NCBI RefSeq assembly: GCF_011682235.2
Contig: NZ_CP076718.1
Span: 3,019,868-3,083,867, forward strand
DNA length: 64,000 nt
From: Rhodocaloribacter litoris
GTDB taxonomy: Bacteria; Bacteroidota; Rhodothermia; Rhodothermales; ISCAR-4553
Direction of reading: 5' to 3'
Positions 11,354 to 61,936 of this stretch are shown one piece after another; positions within the stretch are counted from its first letter, which is position 1; every line of letters begins with the position of its first letter. The position numbers and the translations under genes are program-made. The notes beneath the pieces were generated by a model, which was given only the letters and a program-made list of their open reading frames with translations, did no database searches and was not told where the DNA came from.

Positions 11354-11384
11354 CTTGTATGAACTCACCATTAATATTACTTTG
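11354..11384 (+). promoter_or_regulatory. Bacteroidota-type promoter candidate for the TPR lipoprotein
   Basis: CTTG at 11354-11357 and TTACTTTG at 11377-11384 are separated by 19 bp. They resemble the Bacteroidota -33 TTTG / -7 TAnnTTTG consensus, with one mismatch in each box. The surrounding 60 bp are conspicuously AT-rich. The predicted leader before the ATG at 11476 would be about 85 nt. Confidence 0.4.
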
Positions 11385-11475
11385 TCGAACCCCACCGTGG
11401 CCGGCCGCGTCATGCGGCCGAAGCGCTACCACACCAGAACACCTCTTCGTCCCACATACAGGAAGGCATACCATC

Positions 11476-12681
11476 ATGAAACGGTTTTCTGTCTTTTTGG
11501 CCCTTCTGATCGGCGGGTGGCTGCTCATGGGCGCCAACGGGTGCTCGAGCGATCCCAACGTGGAAGGGGCCAAGCTCGACCTCCGCAACAAGGACTATGA
11601 CCGGGCCCTGGAGAACCTGGCGATCGCGCTGGAGAAGAACCCGCAGAACGCCGAGGCGCTCTACCTAAAGGGTCAGGTGTTGCAGGAGCAGGCTTTTGCG
11701 ACGCCGGACGCCGAACAGCACGCGCAGCTGATGGCCGACGCCGTCGCCGCCTATAACCAGGCGCTCGCGATCGATCCGAAGCTGGAGAGCGACATCCGGC
11801 GCAACCTCACGATCGCCTACGTGAACGAGTTCCAGAAGGGCGTGCAGGCTTTCAACCGGGGCCGCGAGGACTCGTCGGCCTTCGACGATGCGGTCCTGTA
11901 CTTCAAGACGGTCTCGCTCATTGCGCCGGACTCGACCGGTCCCTACGTGAACCAGGCCTTCGCCCTGATGAACGCCGGGCGCGATGCCGAGGCGATCGCG
12001 CCGTTCGAGATGGCCATCGAGAAAGGCGAAGACGAGCCGGATACCTACTCGTTCCTGGCAAGCCTCTACCTGTCGAACGATCGTGCCGAAGACGCGGTGA
12101 GGTTGCTCGAGAAGGCCACGCAGGAGCATCCGAACAATGTGGACCTGCAGGCCCAGTTGCTCAATGCCTATACGCTCGCCGGGCAGCTCGACCGGGCCCT
12201 GGAAAAATACCGCGAGGCCGTCGTGGCCGATCCCACTAACAAGGTGTATCATTACAACCTCGGCTCGCTTCTGCTCGAACGGGAGCAGTATGACGAGGCC
12301 ATCGAGCACCTGAAGAAGGCCGTCGAACTGGATCCCGCCTATGCCAATGCGCAGTACAACCTGGGCGCCGCCTATGTGAACAAGGCCGTCGACGTCAACG
12401 AGCGAATCAGCGAACTCGACGACGAGATCCGGGCGAACCCGAACATGCCGGAGGCCGAGCGGCAGGCCAAAGAGGCCGAGATCGAGCGGCTCACCGAAGA
12501 GCGCCGAGAACTCTTCAGCATGGCCGTCGCACCGCTCGAACAGGCCAAGCAGCTGTTCGAAGAGGCCGGTGAGAACCCCATGGAGATCTGCCGCGTGCTG
12601 TTCCAGTCCTACGTCCAGACGAATCAGACGGACAAGGCCGAAGGGGTGCAGGAGTGTGCCGGCTACGGCGACCTCAACTGA
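11476..12681 (+). CDS. Tetratricopeptide repeat lipoprotein
   Basis: A 401-aa protein. ATG 11476 follows a purine-rich leader and opens a lipoprotein signal (MKRFSVFLALLIGGWLLMGANGC) with the lipidated Cys at 23. The body is a run of TPR helices: DYDRALENLAIALEKNPQNAEALYLKG; QLDRALEKYREAVVADP; EQYDEAIEHLKKAVELDPAYANAQYNLG. A charged coiled-coil insert follows (MPEAERQAKEAEIERLTEERREL) before a final repeat. It is probably anchored in the periplasmic leaflet of a membrane as a scaffold; its partners are unknown. It is monocistronic, with a strong terminator 26 bp past the stop. Confidence 0.88.
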   Translation: MKRFSVFLALLIGGWLLMGANGCSSDPNVEGAKLDLRNKDYDRALENLAIALEKNPQNAEALYLKGQVLQEQAFATPDAEQHAQLMADAVAAYNQALAIDPKLESDIRRNLTIAYVNEFQKGVQAFNRGREDSSAFDDAVLYFKTVSLIAPDSTGPYVNQAFALMNAGRDAEAIAPFEMAIEKGEDEPDTYSFLASLYLSNDRAEDAVRLLEKATQEHPNNVDLQAQLLNAYTLAGQLDRALEKYREAVVADPTNKVYHYNLGSLLLEREQYDEAIEHLKKAVELDPAYANAQYNLGAAYVNKAVDVNERISELDDEIRANPNMPEAERQAKEAEIERLTEERRELFSMAVAPLEQAKQLFEEAGENPMEICRVLFQSYVQTNQTDKAEGVQECAGYGDLN

Positions 12682-12706
12682 GCCGCCTTGCAAGACCATC
12701 CGGAGG

Positions 12707-12745
12707 AACCCGGGCTTCGCCGGCGAGGCCCGGGTTCTTTTTTTT
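12707..12745 (+). terminator. Strong rho-independent terminator
   Basis: AACCCGGGC...GCCCGGGTT stem followed by C and eight T residues, directly after the TPR lipoprotein gene. It separates it from the metallopeptidase gene. Confidence 0.9.
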
Positions 12746-12952
12746 GCCTGTCCGGCGGGATCCCGGAAAACCGGGGCGGCAGGGGTTGTCTTTCATGTAA
12801 CGAACCTGTATCGTAGCCATAGCCACGCTGCGGCGGTCGCCGGTACGCCAAGGGCCGTGTGCGGCTCGCCGGGTCGTTGCGGGCACGTGATGCGGATACG
12901 TCACGTTCGAGCTTAACCTGATTTCTCCATCAACGAGGCCGAGGAGGACACG

Positions 12953-13540
12953 ATGGGCTTTAACAATGCAGGGCTCGGGCCTGCCGATCTGGCAATCGTC
13001 CGGCAGCTTCAGCCCGTGATCATCGACACGCTGCGAAAGGCGGCCCGGACGATCGAGCAGGGAGGCGGCAGGGCCGAAAGCAGAAAGTGGTTCGGAGACG
13101 ACAGCCCGGCCTGGATGAACGAACTGCGCCGCCGCCTCAATATGCTCGCCAGCATGATCAATACGAAACCGATCGACGTTTCTTTCTCAAACCTCAACCG
13201 GCGCTGTTCCGGGGAATTTGCGGCGGCACCTCCCCCCACCGGTGGCTGGCGCGACTTCGTAGGCGGGCAGAACCCGATGACGACCGCACAGAACCGCAAT
13301 TTCAGGATCTGGCTCAACCTGGACTGGAACACCGCGCCCCTCTACCGGCCGTTCAAGCGACCCGCCGACAGCAAGTTTCAAACGCTGGTGCACGAGTGCA
13401 CCCATCTCTTTCTGGACACCGACGACGATGCCTACGGGGTGCCGCAGTGTGAGGTGACCGCGGCAACCAATCCGGCCGTCGCCAAGAAGACGGCCGACTG
13501 CTGGGGCTACTTCGTGGAAGAGTTTCGCACCGGGGGGTGA
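12953..13540 (+). CDS. Aspzincin-like (M35, lysine-specific endopeptidase-like) metallopeptidase domain protein
   Basis: A 195-aa protein with an excellent ribosome-binding site (GAGGAGG, 6 nt before the ATG). The key motif is HECTHLFLDTDDDAYG (residues 147-162). It provides the HExxH zinc ligands H147 and H151 with E148 as base, plus a [GD]T-x-D-x-x-YG segment supplying the third Asp ligand, the hallmark of aspzincins. The C-terminal WGYFVEEF resembles the end of such domains. There is no signal peptide and no propeptide, which is odd for a family known mostly from secreted fungal and bacterial enzymes. The last nine codons form the start of a 164-bp tandem duplication. The substrate is unknown. 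Confidence 0.75.
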   Translation: MGFNNAGLGPADLAIVRQLQPVIIDTLRKAARTIEQGGGRAESRKWFGDDSPAWMNELRRRLNMLASMINTKPIDVSFSNLNRRCSGEFAAAPPPTGGWRDFVGGQNPMTTAQNRNFRIWLNLDWNTAPLYRPFKRPADSKFQTLVHECTHLFLDTDDDAYGVPQCEVTAATNPAVAKKTADCWGYFVEEFRTGG

Positions 13541-13840
13541 CCGGAGCCGTCCGGAACGCGAGGGGCCGGCCCGGATGGGAGAACAGGTCCGCGGGTTCGT
13601 TCGTTGGACGTTGCGGCCTTGCGTCTCCGGTTGAAAGCCGGTGTGCAGCGGCCGGCCTCGGACCGTTCCTGAACCTTGTGGAAGAGTTTCGCACCGGGGG
13701 GTGACCGGAGCCGTCCAGAACGCGAGGGGCCGGCCCGGATGGGAGAACAGGTCCGCAGGTTCGTTCGTTGGACGTTGCGGCCTTGCGTCTCCGGTTGAAA
13801 GCGGTGCGCAGCGGCCGGCCTTGGACCGTTCCTGAACCCT
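13514..13840. repeat. Tandem duplication, two copies of a 163-164 bp unit
   Basis: Copy 1 is 13514-13677 and copy 2 is 13678-13840. By eye they differ at about six positions (substitutions plus two one-base indels), so they are about 96% identical. Copy 1 contains the last nine codons and stop of the metallopeptidase gene. Copy 2 repeats this C-terminus without the rest of the gene and ends five bases before the ATG of the downstream PLP enzyme. The unit fills the whole 305-bp gap between the genes. Confidence 0.95.
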
Positions 13841-13845
13841 TTTCC

Positions 13846-15012
13846 ATGCAAGCATCCAGACCTCGATACGGATTCGGCACCCAAGCCGTCCATGCCGGCC
13901 AGACGCCGGACCCGGCCACCGGCGCCATCATGCCGCCCATCTACCAGACCTCGACCTACGTGCAGCGGGCGCCGGGGGATCACCAGGGCTACGAATATGC
14001 CCGGGTCAGCAATCCGACGCGCACCGCGCTCGAGGGCAACCTGGCCGCCCTCGAAGGCGCCCGCCACGGCATCGCCTTCGCTTCGGGGGTGGCCGCGACC
14101 GACGCTGTCGTGCGTTGCCTTCGGCCCGGAGACCACCTCGTCGCGTCCGAAGACCTCTACGGGGGCACCTACCGCCTCTTCCGGCAGGTGTTCGAGCCCT
14201 TCGGCATCCACGCCACCTTCGTCGACATGACGGACCTGGACGCCGTCGAACAGGCCCTGACGCCGGCGACGAAGCTGCTCTGGATCGAGACGCCGACGAA
14301 CCCGCTGCTGCGCATCCTCGACATCCGCGCCCTGAGCGAACTGGCCCACGCGCACGGCATCGATGTGGCCGTCGACAACACGTTCGCCACCCCCTACCTG
14401 CAGCAGCCCCTCTCTCTCGGGGCCGACCTGGTCGTGCATTCCACGACCAAATACCTCGGCGGCCATTCGGACCTCATCGGCGGCGCCGTCTGTACCAGCC
14501 GGGACGACTGGGCCGAACGCCTGCGTTTTCTGGTCAAGACGGTCGGCGCGGTGCCGGGGCCGATGGATTGCTTTCTCACGCTGCGCGGGACGAAGACCCT
14601 CCACCTGCGTATGGAGCGCCATGCGGAGAATGCACGGCGGGTGGCCGAATTTCTCGCCGGGCATCCCAAGGTAGGGCGGGTGTATTATCCCGGGCTGCCC
14701 GGCGACCCGGGCCATGCGCTCGCGCGGCGCCAGATGCGTGCCTTCGGGGGGATGGTTTCCTTTGTCCTCAAAGACGAATCCCTGGAGAAGGCCGTACGGG
14801 TGCTCTCGGGTACGCACGTCTTTGCCCTGGCCGAGAGCCTCGGGGGGGTCGAGAGCCTGATCAACCACCCGGCGACGATGACGCATGCCTCCATCCCTCG
14901 CGAGGACCGGCTCCGGGCCGGTCTCAGCGATGCCCTGATCCGGTTGTCGGTCGGCATCGAGGAGGTGGACGACCTTCTGGCCGACCTCGATCAGGCCCTG
15001 GCGGCGGTGTGA
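13846..15012 (+). CDS. Cys/Met-metabolism PLP-dependent enzyme (cystathionine gamma-synthase/lyase family)
   Basis: A 388-aa enzyme of transsulfuration, cleaving or forming cystathionine or related sulfur amino acids. Family motifs are clear: PIYQTSTY near residue 31, YEYARVSNPTRTALE (phosphate-binding Tyr/Arg of the neighbour subunit), FASGVAATDAV, ETPTNPLL, the AVDNTFATPYLQQP Asp pairing with the PLP ring, and HSTTKYLGGHSD with Schiff-base lysine K202. The C-terminal SLGGVESLINHPATMTHAS and LIRLSVGIEEVDDLL are typical. Motifs alone do not separate gamma-synthase, gamma-lyase and methionine gamma-lyase. The leader is copy 2 of the upstream duplication, and no convincing ribosome-binding site precedes the ATG at 13846. 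Confidence 0.9.
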   Translation: MQASRPRYGFGTQAVHAGQTPDPATGAIMPPIYQTSTYVQRAPGDHQGYEYARVSNPTRTALEGNLAALEGARHGIAFASGVAATDAVVRCLRPGDHLVASEDLYGGTYRLFRQVFEPFGIHATFVDMTDLDAVEQALTPATKLLWIETPTNPLLRILDIRALSELAHAHGIDVAVDNTFATPYLQQPLSLGADLVVHSTTKYLGGHSDLIGGAVCTSRDDWAERLRFLVKTVGAVPGPMDCFLTLRGTKTLHLRMERHAENARRVAEFLAGHPKVGRVYYPGLPGDPGHALARRQMRAFGGMVSFVLKDESLEKAVRVLSGTHVFALAESLGGVESLINHPATMTHASIPREDRLRAGLSDALIRLSVGIEEVDDLLADLDQALAAV

Positions 15013-17099: not shown

Positions 17100-17260
17100 T
17101 TGAGCCTCCCCCGCTTGAAAGCGGGAGATTCCTGCTTCATCGACCGATGCCATGCAACTGAATAGCTGCGCTGGTCTTACTCAGATCTCCACAGGCTGCC
17201 ACGGTCGCTCCGACCGCCAGAATGTTCTTCGCCGCGTTTACGTCGCGGTCGTGTTCGGTA
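17100..17260 (-). ncRNA. Predicted omega-RNA (reRNA) of the tnpB element; 5' limit approximate
   Basis: In IS605-type elements the guide scaffold overlaps the 3' end of tnpB and runs to the right end, with the guide taken from flanking DNA. Here that predicts a scaffold ending at 17100, including the 17106-17127 hairpin, and a guide beginning GTCAAGCTGACCC in the interrupted gene. The 5' boundary cannot be read. This is inferred from family knowledge plus the hairpin. Confidence 0.45.
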
Positions 17261-18315
17261 CTGCATTCCTCGCAGGTCCAGCGGCGCACACTGAGAGGCA
17301 TCTTCTCGCGGATATGACCGCACGCGCTACACCGCTTCGAAGAGGGGAACCATCGATCCACCTTGATGAGCGTACGCCCGTACCACTCGCACTTGTATTC
17401 GAGTTGGCGGACGATCTCGCCCCAACTCGCCCCCGAGATGGAGCGGGCGAGATGGCGGTTCTTCAGCATATTCTTCACCGCAAGGCTCTCGACAGCGATC
17501 ACGTCGTGGTTCTTGACAAGATCGGTCGTGAGCTTGTGGATGAAGTCGCTACGCCGGTCAGCAATGCGGGCGTGGAGCTTCGCCACTTTTCGGCGCTGCT
17601 TCTCCCAGTTGTTGCTTCCTTTCTGCTTCCGGCTGAGAGCTTTCTGCGCCCGACGCAGACGGCGATACGCTCTGCGGAGGTGCCTGGGGTTGCCGCTGCG
17701 GAAACCGTCAGAGGTCACAACCACGTCATTGAGCCCGAGATCGACGCCGACGCTCTTGCCTGTCTTTCCGCCCGGATCGGCGGGCGGCAGCGGCTCTACC
17801 TTGCACCGGCAGTGCAGGCAGACGTGGTAGCGCCCCGAGGGGTCGAGCGTCACCGTCACCTTGACGACCTCGCCCTCCGGCTTCCGGCTCCACCGGATCT
17901 TGAGCGGTGCCTTCTGCTTCGCCAGCGTGAGTGTCATTGCTTCGGGATCAAAGCGGAAGGCGCTGCTGGCGTACGTTGCACTCTGCTTTCCACGCTTGCG
18001 CTTGAAGGAGGGGTAGCCGCTCCGACCCTCGAAGAAGTTCGTGAAGGCACGTTCGAGGTTGCGAAGCGATTGCTGAAGTACGACGCTGGATACCTCCCCG
18101 AGCCACCGCGTCTCCTCCCGTTTCTTGATCTGCGTGAGTTCGACGGCGAGGCTGTTGTAGGTGAGGCTTTTGCCCTCGCCGTGGTAAGCGTTGGTTCTAC
18201 GCTCCAGCCCCCAGTTGTACACCCAGCGGGCACAGCCGAACGTGCGAGCAAGGTTCTGCCTCTGCTCGGCGTTCGGGTAGGCGCGGTAGCGATATGTTCG
18301 CATCACCTCGGGCAT
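17137..18315 (-). CDS. tnpB: TnpB RNA-guided nuclease of IS200/IS605-type element
   Basis: A 392-aa protein if it starts at ATG 18315; GTG 18327 and ATG 18303 are alternatives. It has an N-terminal OrfB_IS605 helical region (YRYRAYPNAEQRQNLARTFG) and then a RuvC fold with all acidic residues: D192 in VGVDLGLND, E276 in VIAVESLAVKN and D358 in HDRDVNAAKN. The four zinc-ribbon cysteines (CSAC...CEEC, residues 329-351) are present. TnpB proteins are omega-RNA-guided DNA nucleases that cut the empty donor site next to a TAM and so favour retention of the element. This copy has no frameshift or missing catalytic residue and looks functional. The C-terminal tail ends 37 bp before the right end of the element. 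Confidence 0.93.
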   Translation of the reverse strand: MPEVMRTYRYRAYPNAEQRQNLARTFGCARWVYNWGLERRTNAYHGEGKSLTYNSLAVELTQIKKREETRWLGEVSSVVLQQSLRNLERAFTNFFEGRSGYPSFKRKRGKQSATYASSAFRFDPEAMTLTLAKQKAPLKIRWSRKPEGEVVKVTVTLDPSGRYHVCLHCRCKVEPLPPADPGGKTGKSVGVDLGLNDVVVTSDGFRSGNPRHLRRAYRRLRRAQKALSRKQKGSNNWEKQRRKVAKLHARIADRRSDFIHKLTTDLVKNHDVIAVESLAVKNMLKNRHLARSISGASWGEIVRQLEYKCEWYGRTLIKVDRWFPSSKRCSACGHIREKMPLSVRRWTCEECSTEHDRDVNAAKNILAVGATVAACGDLSKTSAAIQLHGIGR

Positions 18316-18362
18316 AGTTACACGCACCCCTATTATGTGCGTAAGGTTCCCGCTCAGTCGTG

Positions 18363-60040: not shown

Positions 60041-61936
60041 TCACTGGCTAACCTCCGCCGTCGCGGGTTCAGTGACTTCCACAACGCGAAACATGCCCAT
60101 ATCCATGTGATAGAGGATGTGGCAGTGAAACACCCAGGGGCCGGTCTCATCGGGGACTACGAGTACCGAGAGCCGTTCGGCGGGCTTGACAATCAGGGTA
60201 TGCTTGCGGGGCAGGTGCGGGAAGTGGCCGTTCTCCAGCATCATCCACATGCCGTGCAGGTGCATGGGATGCTCCATCATGGTGTCGTTGACGAAGGTGA
60301 TCCGCACCCGCTCGCCTTTTTCGATACGGATGGGCTCAGGGGCCTCCGAGTAGGCTTTGCCGTCGATCGACCACATGTAACGCTCCATGTTACCGGTCAG
60401 GTGGAGCTCGATCTCACGGGTCGGGGGAGGCATGTCGATCGTCGGCTCCATGCTCTTCAGGTCGGTATAGACCAGCACCCGGCGCCCGTCGTTGCCCAGG
60501 CCGATGCCGGGTTCGTGGAGGCGGCTACGGGTCATCATGGGTACGGCGGCATTGCCCGGCCCGTGGGTGTCTTCTCCGTGGGGCACGGCCGGAGGGAGGG
60601 TGCCCGGAGGGGCCAGCCCCGCCATGGCCCCCATCTGCATCCCGTGCCCTTCGTGGTCCATGCCTGGCATGTTGCCGTGGTCCATGCCTGGCATGTTGCC
60701 GTGGTCCATGCCTGGCATGTTGCCGTGGTCCATGCCTGGCATGTTGCCGTGGTCCATGCCTGGCATGTTGCCGTGGTCCATGCCCTGCATGTTGCCGTGG
60801 TCCATGCCCATATCGGCCATGGAGCGGGCAGGGCGGCGGCGCTGTTCGGGGACCGGAGCCTGCAGGCCTTCGCGGGGGGCGAGTGTGCCGCGGGCATAGC
60901 CGCTGCGATCCATCGACTCGGCGAAGATGGTATACGCCCGGTCTTCCCGGGGCTCGACGATCACGTCGTAGGTCTCCGCGATGCCGATGCGGAACTCGTC
61001 CACCGTCACCGGCTGGACGTTCTGCCCGTCGGCCTGTACGATGGTCAGGGGCAGGCCCGGGATCCGTACATCGAAGAACGACCCGGCCCCGGCATTGATG
61101 AAGCGCAGGCGGACCCGCTCGCCCGGGCGGAACAGGGCGGTCCAGTTGTCCTCCGGCGCCAGCCCATTCATCAGATAGGTGTAGGTCGCCCCGGTGACGT
61201 CGGCCAGGTCGGTGGCGTCCATCCGCATGCGGCCCCATCTGAGGCGATCGCGCAGGCTCAGGTCTTCTCCCCGGAGCAACCCGAGGAGGGTCTGTCGCTG
61301 GAAGTTGTAGTATCCGGGCATTTTGCGGAGCTTGCGCAGCACCCGGTGCGGATCCTCGAAGGTCCAGTCACTGAGTACGACCACGTGTTCGCGGTCGTAG
61401 GCCACCGGGTCGTCACCGGCAGGATCGACGATGATGGGGCCATACACGCCCGTTTGTTCTTGCAGGCCGCTGTGGCTGTGGTACCAGTAGGTTCCGGATT
61501 GCCGGAGGGCGAAGCGATAGGTGAACGTCTCGCCGGGCCGGATGCCGGGGAAGCTGACGCCGGGCACGCCATCCATATTGAAAGGAACCAGCAGGCCGTG
61601 CCAGTGGATCGAGGTATCCTCCTTCAGCCGGTTGGTGACCTTGAGGACCACCTCTTCCCCTTCGCGAAAGCGTAGCAGGGGGCCGGGCACGGTTCCATTG
61701 ATGGTGGTAGCCCGAGCATGGCGCCCACCGAAACGGAGCCCGGTCTCGGCGATGGTCAGCTCATAGACCGTAGGGGGGCGTGAACCCGCGACGGGCGGGG
61801 TCAGGCCTCCAGTCAACGGGCGGGCATAGGCCGGGAGCAGGTGCTTGATTCCGGCCAGCAGCCCGAACGCTGCGGCCTGGTGTAAAAAAGTGCGCCGGGA
61901 AAGGGGCGCGGTCTCCAGCGTCAACTTTTTTTTCAT
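60041..61936 (-). CDS. copA: Multicopper oxidase CopA-like with Met/His repeat domain
   Basis: A 631-aa periplasmic oxidase with a twin-arginine signal ([18 protein letters not shown], residues 12-29). Three cupredoxin domains carry all copper-site motifs: [29 protein letters not shown] and [14 protein letters not shown]. About residues 377-428 hold six repeats of MDHGNM(P/Q)G followed by [11 protein letters not shown], a likely Cu(I)-binding segment. The family oxidises Cu(I) to Cu(II) and confers periplasmic copper tolerance. It is followed by copB, whose GTG start candidate overlaps its stop. The TTAAGG repeats upstream may be its regulatory site. Confidence 0.94.
60652..60808. repeat. 24-bp tandem repeat encoding MDHGNMPG in copA
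   Basis: About six tandem copies of a 24-bp unit (plus strand, CATGCCTGGCATGTTGCCG and so on), nearly identical at the DNA level; the last copy differs (CCCTGCATG). They are in frame with the oxidase gene and give a Met/His-rich loop. The very high DNA identity implies recent expansion or conversion. Confidence 0.95.

What the first reader, a model, noticed from the sequence alone, without database searches (positions are those of the whole stretch)
13514..13840. 164-bp tandem duplication that fills the gap between two genes
The duplicated unit starts inside the last nine codons of the aspzincin gene and ends five bases before the next ATG, so copy 2 has become the leader of the PLP enzyme gene. 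The copies differ at about six positions, enough to suggest it is not an assembly artefact. It may have replaced the original promoter of the PLP gene.
Basis: seen in the sequence. Interest (0 to 1): 0.55.

Follow-up and report, generated by a model that had tools for sequence, protein, structure and literature searches.

The report
Small duplication beside an acquired gene
A 164-base stretch at the end of a protease gene was copied once, head to tail, in a gap where that gene had probably arrived from elsewhere; it looks like an ordinary copying accident and shows no sign of being a new promoter.

Summary
The repeat is real: copy 1 is 13514-13677, copy 2 is 13678-13838, differing by four transitions and one deleted base over 162 aligned positions. 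It occurs once in the genome; no second copy turned up in 59 relatives.

The promoter idea fails. A tandem duplication leaves the last 164 bases before the PLP gene unchanged, so it cannot have replaced a promoter there. The unit has no TA dinucleotide, no sigma-70-like site, no Rfam match and an ordinary fold.

What changed upstream of PLP is a gene insertion. In 28 of 29 relative loci examined (the best of 59 relatives) the PLP gene follows the TPR gene within 262 bp. Here an aspzincin M35 gene lies between them (1,164 bp). It has no homologue in the relatives searched; its best match is in Lysobacteraceae (73%), so lateral acquisition is likely.

Likeliest reading: a neutral local duplication, later than the insertion, with PLP probably read through from upstream. 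The origin of the unit's 137 non-coding bases is unresolved. Ordinary, low interest.

The parts
11359..12681 (+). TPR-repeat protein gene, upstream neighbour (start as the longest ORF gives it)
   Evidence: Pfam TPR models; TPR homologue upstream of PLP on the same strand in 28 of 29 relative loci
12702..12745 (+). Terminator-like hairpin with T-run after the TPR gene
   Evidence: local alignment with the G001 TPR-PLP spacer scores 58, shuffle maximum 23 of 200; a GC-rich hairpin was found in 27 of 27 relative spacers examined, without a shuffle control
12786..12814 (+). Weak promoter-like site (TTGTCT-17-TATCGT) upstream of the aspzincin gene; candidate only
   Evidence: 8 of 12 consensus matches, reached by 78 of 200 shuffles, so not significant
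12953..13540 (+). Aspzincin (M35) metallo-endopeptidase gene, probably laterally acquired
   Evidence: PF14521 48 bits, cut-off 30; found in 0 of 59, 0 of 113 and 0 of 393 relatives, overlapping sets; 73% identity to Lysobacteraceae L040/L041
13514..13677 (+). Copy 1 of the 164-bp unit: last 8 codons and stop of the aspzincin gene plus 137 non-coding bases
13678..13838 (+). Copy 2 of the unit, including a displaced copy of the aspzincin gene end
13846..15012 (+). Cys/Met-metabolism PLP-dependent enzyme gene (cystathionine gamma-synthase-like)
   Evidence: PF01053 E=2.7e-156; NF005871 551 bits, cut-off 513

Best explanation
An aspzincin M35 gene was acquired and lodged between a TPR gene and a PLP-enzyme gene that are neighbours in nearly all relatives examined. 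Later 164 bases spanning the end of that gene and its downstream spacer were duplicated once, head to tail, most likely by replication slippage or another illegitimate recombination with little or no homology. The copies then drifted apart. The duplication itself has no evident function, and the PLP gene is probably transcribed by read-through from upstream of the aspzincin gene. Shown: the duplication, its single occurrence, the altered gene order, and no aspzincin homologue in the relatives searched. Inferred: lateral acquisition, the order of events, the slippage mechanism, neutrality and read-through.
For: Two copies at 13514-13838 with 5 differences in 162 aligned positions. One place in the own genome. 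The aspzincin tail in copy 1 (WGYFVEEFR) is conserved in the Lysobacteraceae homologue and as WGYFVEDLR in the Phycisphaeraceae one, so copy 1 is the native arrangement and copy 2 carries a displaced tail. TPR and PLP genes lie on one strand 3-262 bp apart in 28 of 29 relative loci, against 1,164 bp here. No aspzincin homologue in 59, 113 or 393 relatives (overlapping sets). No sigma-70-like site at the tool's threshold in 12600-14000, and no terminator-like site between the aspzincin stop and the PLP start. No TA dinucleotide in 13514-13845. Single copies fold like shuffles (z -0.70 and -0.61).
Against: No sister strain with one copy was available, so the order of events is inferred. Lack of TA over 305 bases is only moderately unusual here (1.7% of stretches in the window; 2.5% in the 400-kb sample), and other promoter types would be missed. 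No significant promoter was found upstream of the aspzincin gene either, so read-through is not demonstrated. Both copies folded together are somewhat more stable than shuffles (z -1.75, 3 of 100), which pairing between copies may explain. Shared bases at the joint, judged by eye, are 2-3 at best and blurred by later changes.
Confidence: 0.8

Rival explanations
1. The unit carries the promoter or a regulatory leader of the PLP gene, and its duplication strengthened or re-timed expression.
For: Copy 2 directly abuts the PLP gene. No other sigma-70-like promoter was found nearby at the tool's threshold, so no alternative start is proven.
Against: Best relaxed sigma-70 match between 13514 and 13845 is 6 of 12, reached or exceeded by 200 of 200 shuffles. 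No TA dinucleotide. No Rfam match inside the repeat even at E<=5. Ordinary fold of each copy. The duplication did not alter the 164 bases next to PLP.
Confidence: 0.1
2. The 137 non-coding bases of the unit are the old TPR-PLP spacer (hairpin plus PLP leader), kept beside PLP and then duplicated. This is compatible with a neutral duplication but changes where the insertion point lies.
For: Local alignments with relatives' spacers fall in the expected order in single cases: L037 hairpin at unit bases 29-65 and L013 leader at 108-135, scores 28 and 29, with 0 and 1 of 200 shuffles as high. The summed score over 27 spacers is 469 against a control mean of 430, sd 21.
Against: 4 of 99 own-genome intergenic controls reach the summed score and 5 of 99 the maximum (2 and 3 of 41 among GC-rich ones); the reverse complement of the unit reaches 456 in sum: borderline at best. 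The nearest relative, G001, shows nothing (score 15, 111 of 200 shuffles as high). The hairpin shared with G001 is still in place at 12702-12741.
Confidence: 0.2
3. The two copies are an assembly artefact.
For: No second assembly of this species was available for comparison (the collections may leave out the window's own and very near records).
Against: The copies differ at five positions including an indel, and the genome is a single contig at 99.9% completeness.
Confidence: 0.03

Closest known systems
Local tandem duplication by illegitimate recombination in bacteria (e.g. the promoter-capture duplications described in PMC11111574)
   Same: A head-to-tail copy without long homology, next to a probably acquired gene. 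PMC11111574 (passages seen, abstract and introduction included) describes spontaneous tandem duplications that activate horizontally transferred genes.
   Different: There the duplication brings a promoter in front of the acquired gene. Here the unit lies behind the acquired gene and holds only a gene tail and non-coding DNA with no recognisable promoter.
Dispersed intergenic repeats (REP/BIME- or MITE-like; recalled)
   Same: A repeated, largely intergenic unit.
   Different: One place in the own genome, and no inverted repeat with both arms inside the unit was listed.

Membership tests
Local tandem duplication | Adjacent, same-orientation copies of one unit | tested here: met
Local tandem duplication | Unit includes local single-copy sequence (end of the neighbouring gene) | tested here: met
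   Copy 1 holds the conserved aspzincin C-terminus; copy 2 repeats it out of context
Local tandem duplication | Short homology at the parental junctions | tested here: inconclusive
   At best AC or CTT shared, read by eye from the contexts; blurred by changes at 13511/13675 and 13513/13677
Local tandem duplication | One-copy state in a close relative | not testable with these tools
   No relative searched holds the aspzincin gene
Dispersed repeat family | Further copies elsewhere in the genome | tested here: not met
   One place at E<=0.001; four further own-genome matches at E<=1 are 19-27 bases long
Promoter or riboswitch leader of the PLP gene | Recognisable promoter or known RNA family in the unit | tested here: not met
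   other promoter types and undescribed RNAs are not covered
Integron gene cassette with attC | Integrase gene in the genome and paired attC core sites | not tested
   Considered because GTTGGAC in the unit fits the recalled core GTTRRRY; a 7-base match is weak and no integrase search was run

The most novel reading that the evidence does not exclude
The duplicated spacer acts as an insulator or post-transcriptional leader that lets the conserved PLP gene keep working after a foreign gene separated it from its old neighbour, so the duplication was selected as a repair of expression.
Probability: 0.04. Interest if true: 0.4.

Novelty: new member of a known kind. Interest (0 to 1): 0.12.

Why it matters
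It is a small, clear example of an acquired gene separating a conserved gene pair, followed by reshaping of the site through duplication. The repeat alone teaches little that is new. It also shows a general point: a tandem duplication does not change the sequence directly upstream of the next gene.

Tried and rejected
Promoter in the unit: rejected as far as sigma-70-type sites go. Known RNA family: six sub-threshold matches in 12650-14000, none inside the repeat, all far below gathering scores. Structured RNA: each copy on each strand has z between -0.23 and -0.70. Dispersed repeat: rejected. The strongest match in relatives, 37 bp at 84% in G023 (E 5.3e-4 for one genome; the same query bases match G013 and G033 at 81%), lies inside a long ORF in L002 that reads like NADH-quinone oxidoreductase subunit L (recalled from the sequence, no family search run) and is taken as chance. 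Unit derived from the old TPR-PLP spacer: not accepted and not excluded; suggestive single alignments but 4 of 99 intergenic controls score as high in sum. A first control with 293 random 137-mers of the window looked stronger (1 of 293 for the sum, 7 for the maximum), but those are mostly coding, so intergenic controls were used instead. Sources of the insert: no DNA match in plasmids, one Streptomyces plasmid protein at 26%, none in phages, one partial match in a viral contig (42% over 41 residues), not followed. Literature: searched; one search returned nothing; only PMC11111574 was opened, and only passages of it were seen. No search was made for this particular repeat in print.

Full report
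Observation. The repeat is present as described: TRF finds 13514-13838 with period 164 and 2.0 copies at 96% matches, and the direct-repeat search gives the same register. Copy 1 (13514-13677) starts with the last 8 codons and the stop of the aspzincin gene. Copy 2 (13678-13838) ends 7 bases before the PLP start codon at 13846. The copies differ by four transitions and one deleted base in 162 aligned positions, with two further mismatches at the left edge if the unit is begun at 13509. The differences include an indel, and the genome is a single contig of 4.5 Mb at 99.9% completeness, so an assembly error is unlikely.

Local or dispersed? The 325-base array has one place in the own genome at E<=0.001. 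In a wider search at E<=1 over 60 genomes (own included), 50 had some match, but apart from the locus itself the listed ones are short, about 16-50 bases, and the list was cut. Only one relative passed E<=0.001: 37 bp in G023, inside a long open frame that reads like NuoL (a recalled label). The repeat is therefore local. In a 400-kb sample (20 stretches of the own genome) plus this window, TRF found four arrays with period 50-500: three in the sample and this one.

Surroundings. The gene before the repeat is an aspzincin M35 endopeptidase (PF14521); its sequence keeps HECTH and TDDDAYG (motif names recalled). It is the only PF14521 match in the genome. A homologue was found in none of 59 relatives, none of 113 other genomes of the order and none of 393 others drawn from the phylum; these sets overlap. 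A scan of the genome-contig collection with peptide patterns, which finds close relatives only, gave 4 loci: two Lysobacteraceae at 73% identity over the whole protein, one Phycisphaeraceae at 44%, and one partial match in Marinomonas. DNA similarity to the Lysobacteraceae locus covers 12942-13542 at 69%, and the gene tail in copy 2 matches the same tail again (13678-13706); for the non-coding part of the unit only chance-level matches appear. This patchy distribution points to lateral acquisition, but 69% DNA identity names neither a donor nor a recent transfer. GC at third positions of the gene (0.796) is within the range of its neighbours (0.765-0.896), so composition gives no support for a recent arrival.

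Gene order. The PLP gene is cystathionine gamma-synthase-like. All 60 genomes searched have a match at E<=0.001, though in some the best match may be a paralogue. Loci were held for the 29 best relatives. In 28 of these the TPR homologue lies directly upstream on the same strand, 3-262 bp from stop to start. The 3-bp case (L026) is probably a misplaced start. In L019 no TPR hit fell within the locus. Here the gap is 1,164 bp and holds the aspzincin gene. A GC-rich hairpin was found in 27 of 27 spacers examined (L026 left out as too short, L019 not available; no shuffle control), 12-168 bases (median 70) from the PLP start. In the window the hairpin stays next to TPR, where it aligns with that of the nearest relative G001 (score 58, shuffle maximum 23), so the aspzincin gene lies between that hairpin and PLP.

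Why the promoter idea fails. When a stretch is duplicated head to tail, the sequence immediately upstream of the next gene, for one unit length, is what it was before. The duplication only pushed sequence further than 164 bases away by another 164. The unit was therefore already the PLP leader before it was duplicated, and the event that displaced the old upstream region was the insertion. The unit also lacks signs of a sigma-70 promoter: there is no TA dinucleotide in 13514-13845, a state shared by 1.7% of 305-base stretches of the window and 2.5% in the 400-kb sample; the promoter scan finds nothing; and the best relaxed match is 6 of 12, reached or exceeded by all 200 shuffles. A site of 8 of 12 at 12786, upstream of the aspzincin gene, is the best candidate between TPR and aspzincin, but 78 of 200 shuffles do as well. 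No terminator-like site lies between the aspzincin stop and the PLP start, so read-through into PLP is plausible; this is inference. Other promoter types are not covered by these scans.

Structure and RNA. No Rfam family reaches its threshold, and no sub-threshold match at E<=5 lies inside the repeat. Each copy folds no better than shuffles (z -0.70 and -0.61 on the plus strand, -0.24 and -0.23 on the minus). The two copies together give z -1.75, with 3 of 100 shuffles as stable, which pairing between copies may explain.

Origin of the unit's non-coding part. It could be the old TPR-PLP spacer or have come with the aspzincin gene. Against the nearest relative's spacer there is no similarity. 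Some other spacers align better (L013 score 29, L037 score 28). Against 99 own-genome intergenic controls, 4 reach the unit's summed score and 5 its maximum; among 41 GC-rich controls, 2 and 3 do. This is borderline and stays open.

Mechanism. The joint (GAACC-TT-GTGG, 13671-13681) shares at best AC or CTT with the parental ends, read by eye, which is consistent with slippage or another illegitimate recombination. Spontaneous tandem duplications without long homology beside acquired genes are described in E. coli, where they can activate the acquired gene by promoter capture (PMC11111574; passages seen). That layout is not the one seen here.

Verdict. This is most likely an ordinary local duplication beside an acquired gene.

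Noticed in passing
12702-12745 and the TPR-PLP spacers of L011-L039: A GC-rich hairpin between the TPR and PLP genes was found in 27 of 27 relative spacers examined, in 4 of them only 12-22 bases before the PLP start, leaving little room for a separate promoter; it may be a leaky terminator or attenuator.
   Followed up: partly
60652-60808: Tandem array of a 24-bp unit, 6.5 copies at 98%, inside a multicopper-oxidase-like ORF on the minus strand (60041-61936), encoding a repeated His/Met-containing MDHGNMPG motif, possibly metal-binding (family name recalled).
   Followed up: no
17137-18327: TnpB/IS605 OrfB-like ORF on the minus strand about 3 kb from the repeat (name recalled from the sequence, no family search run).
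   Followed up: no
L041:4678-6201: In Thermomonas the aspzincin homologue is followed on the same strand by a gene for an alpha/beta-hydrolase-like protein (PGAP1 25.3 bits, cut-off 24.3); the pair might be a functional unit there.
   Followed up: no
L054:13844-14924: Own-genome array of a 168-bp unit, 6.4 copies at 80%.
   Followed up: no
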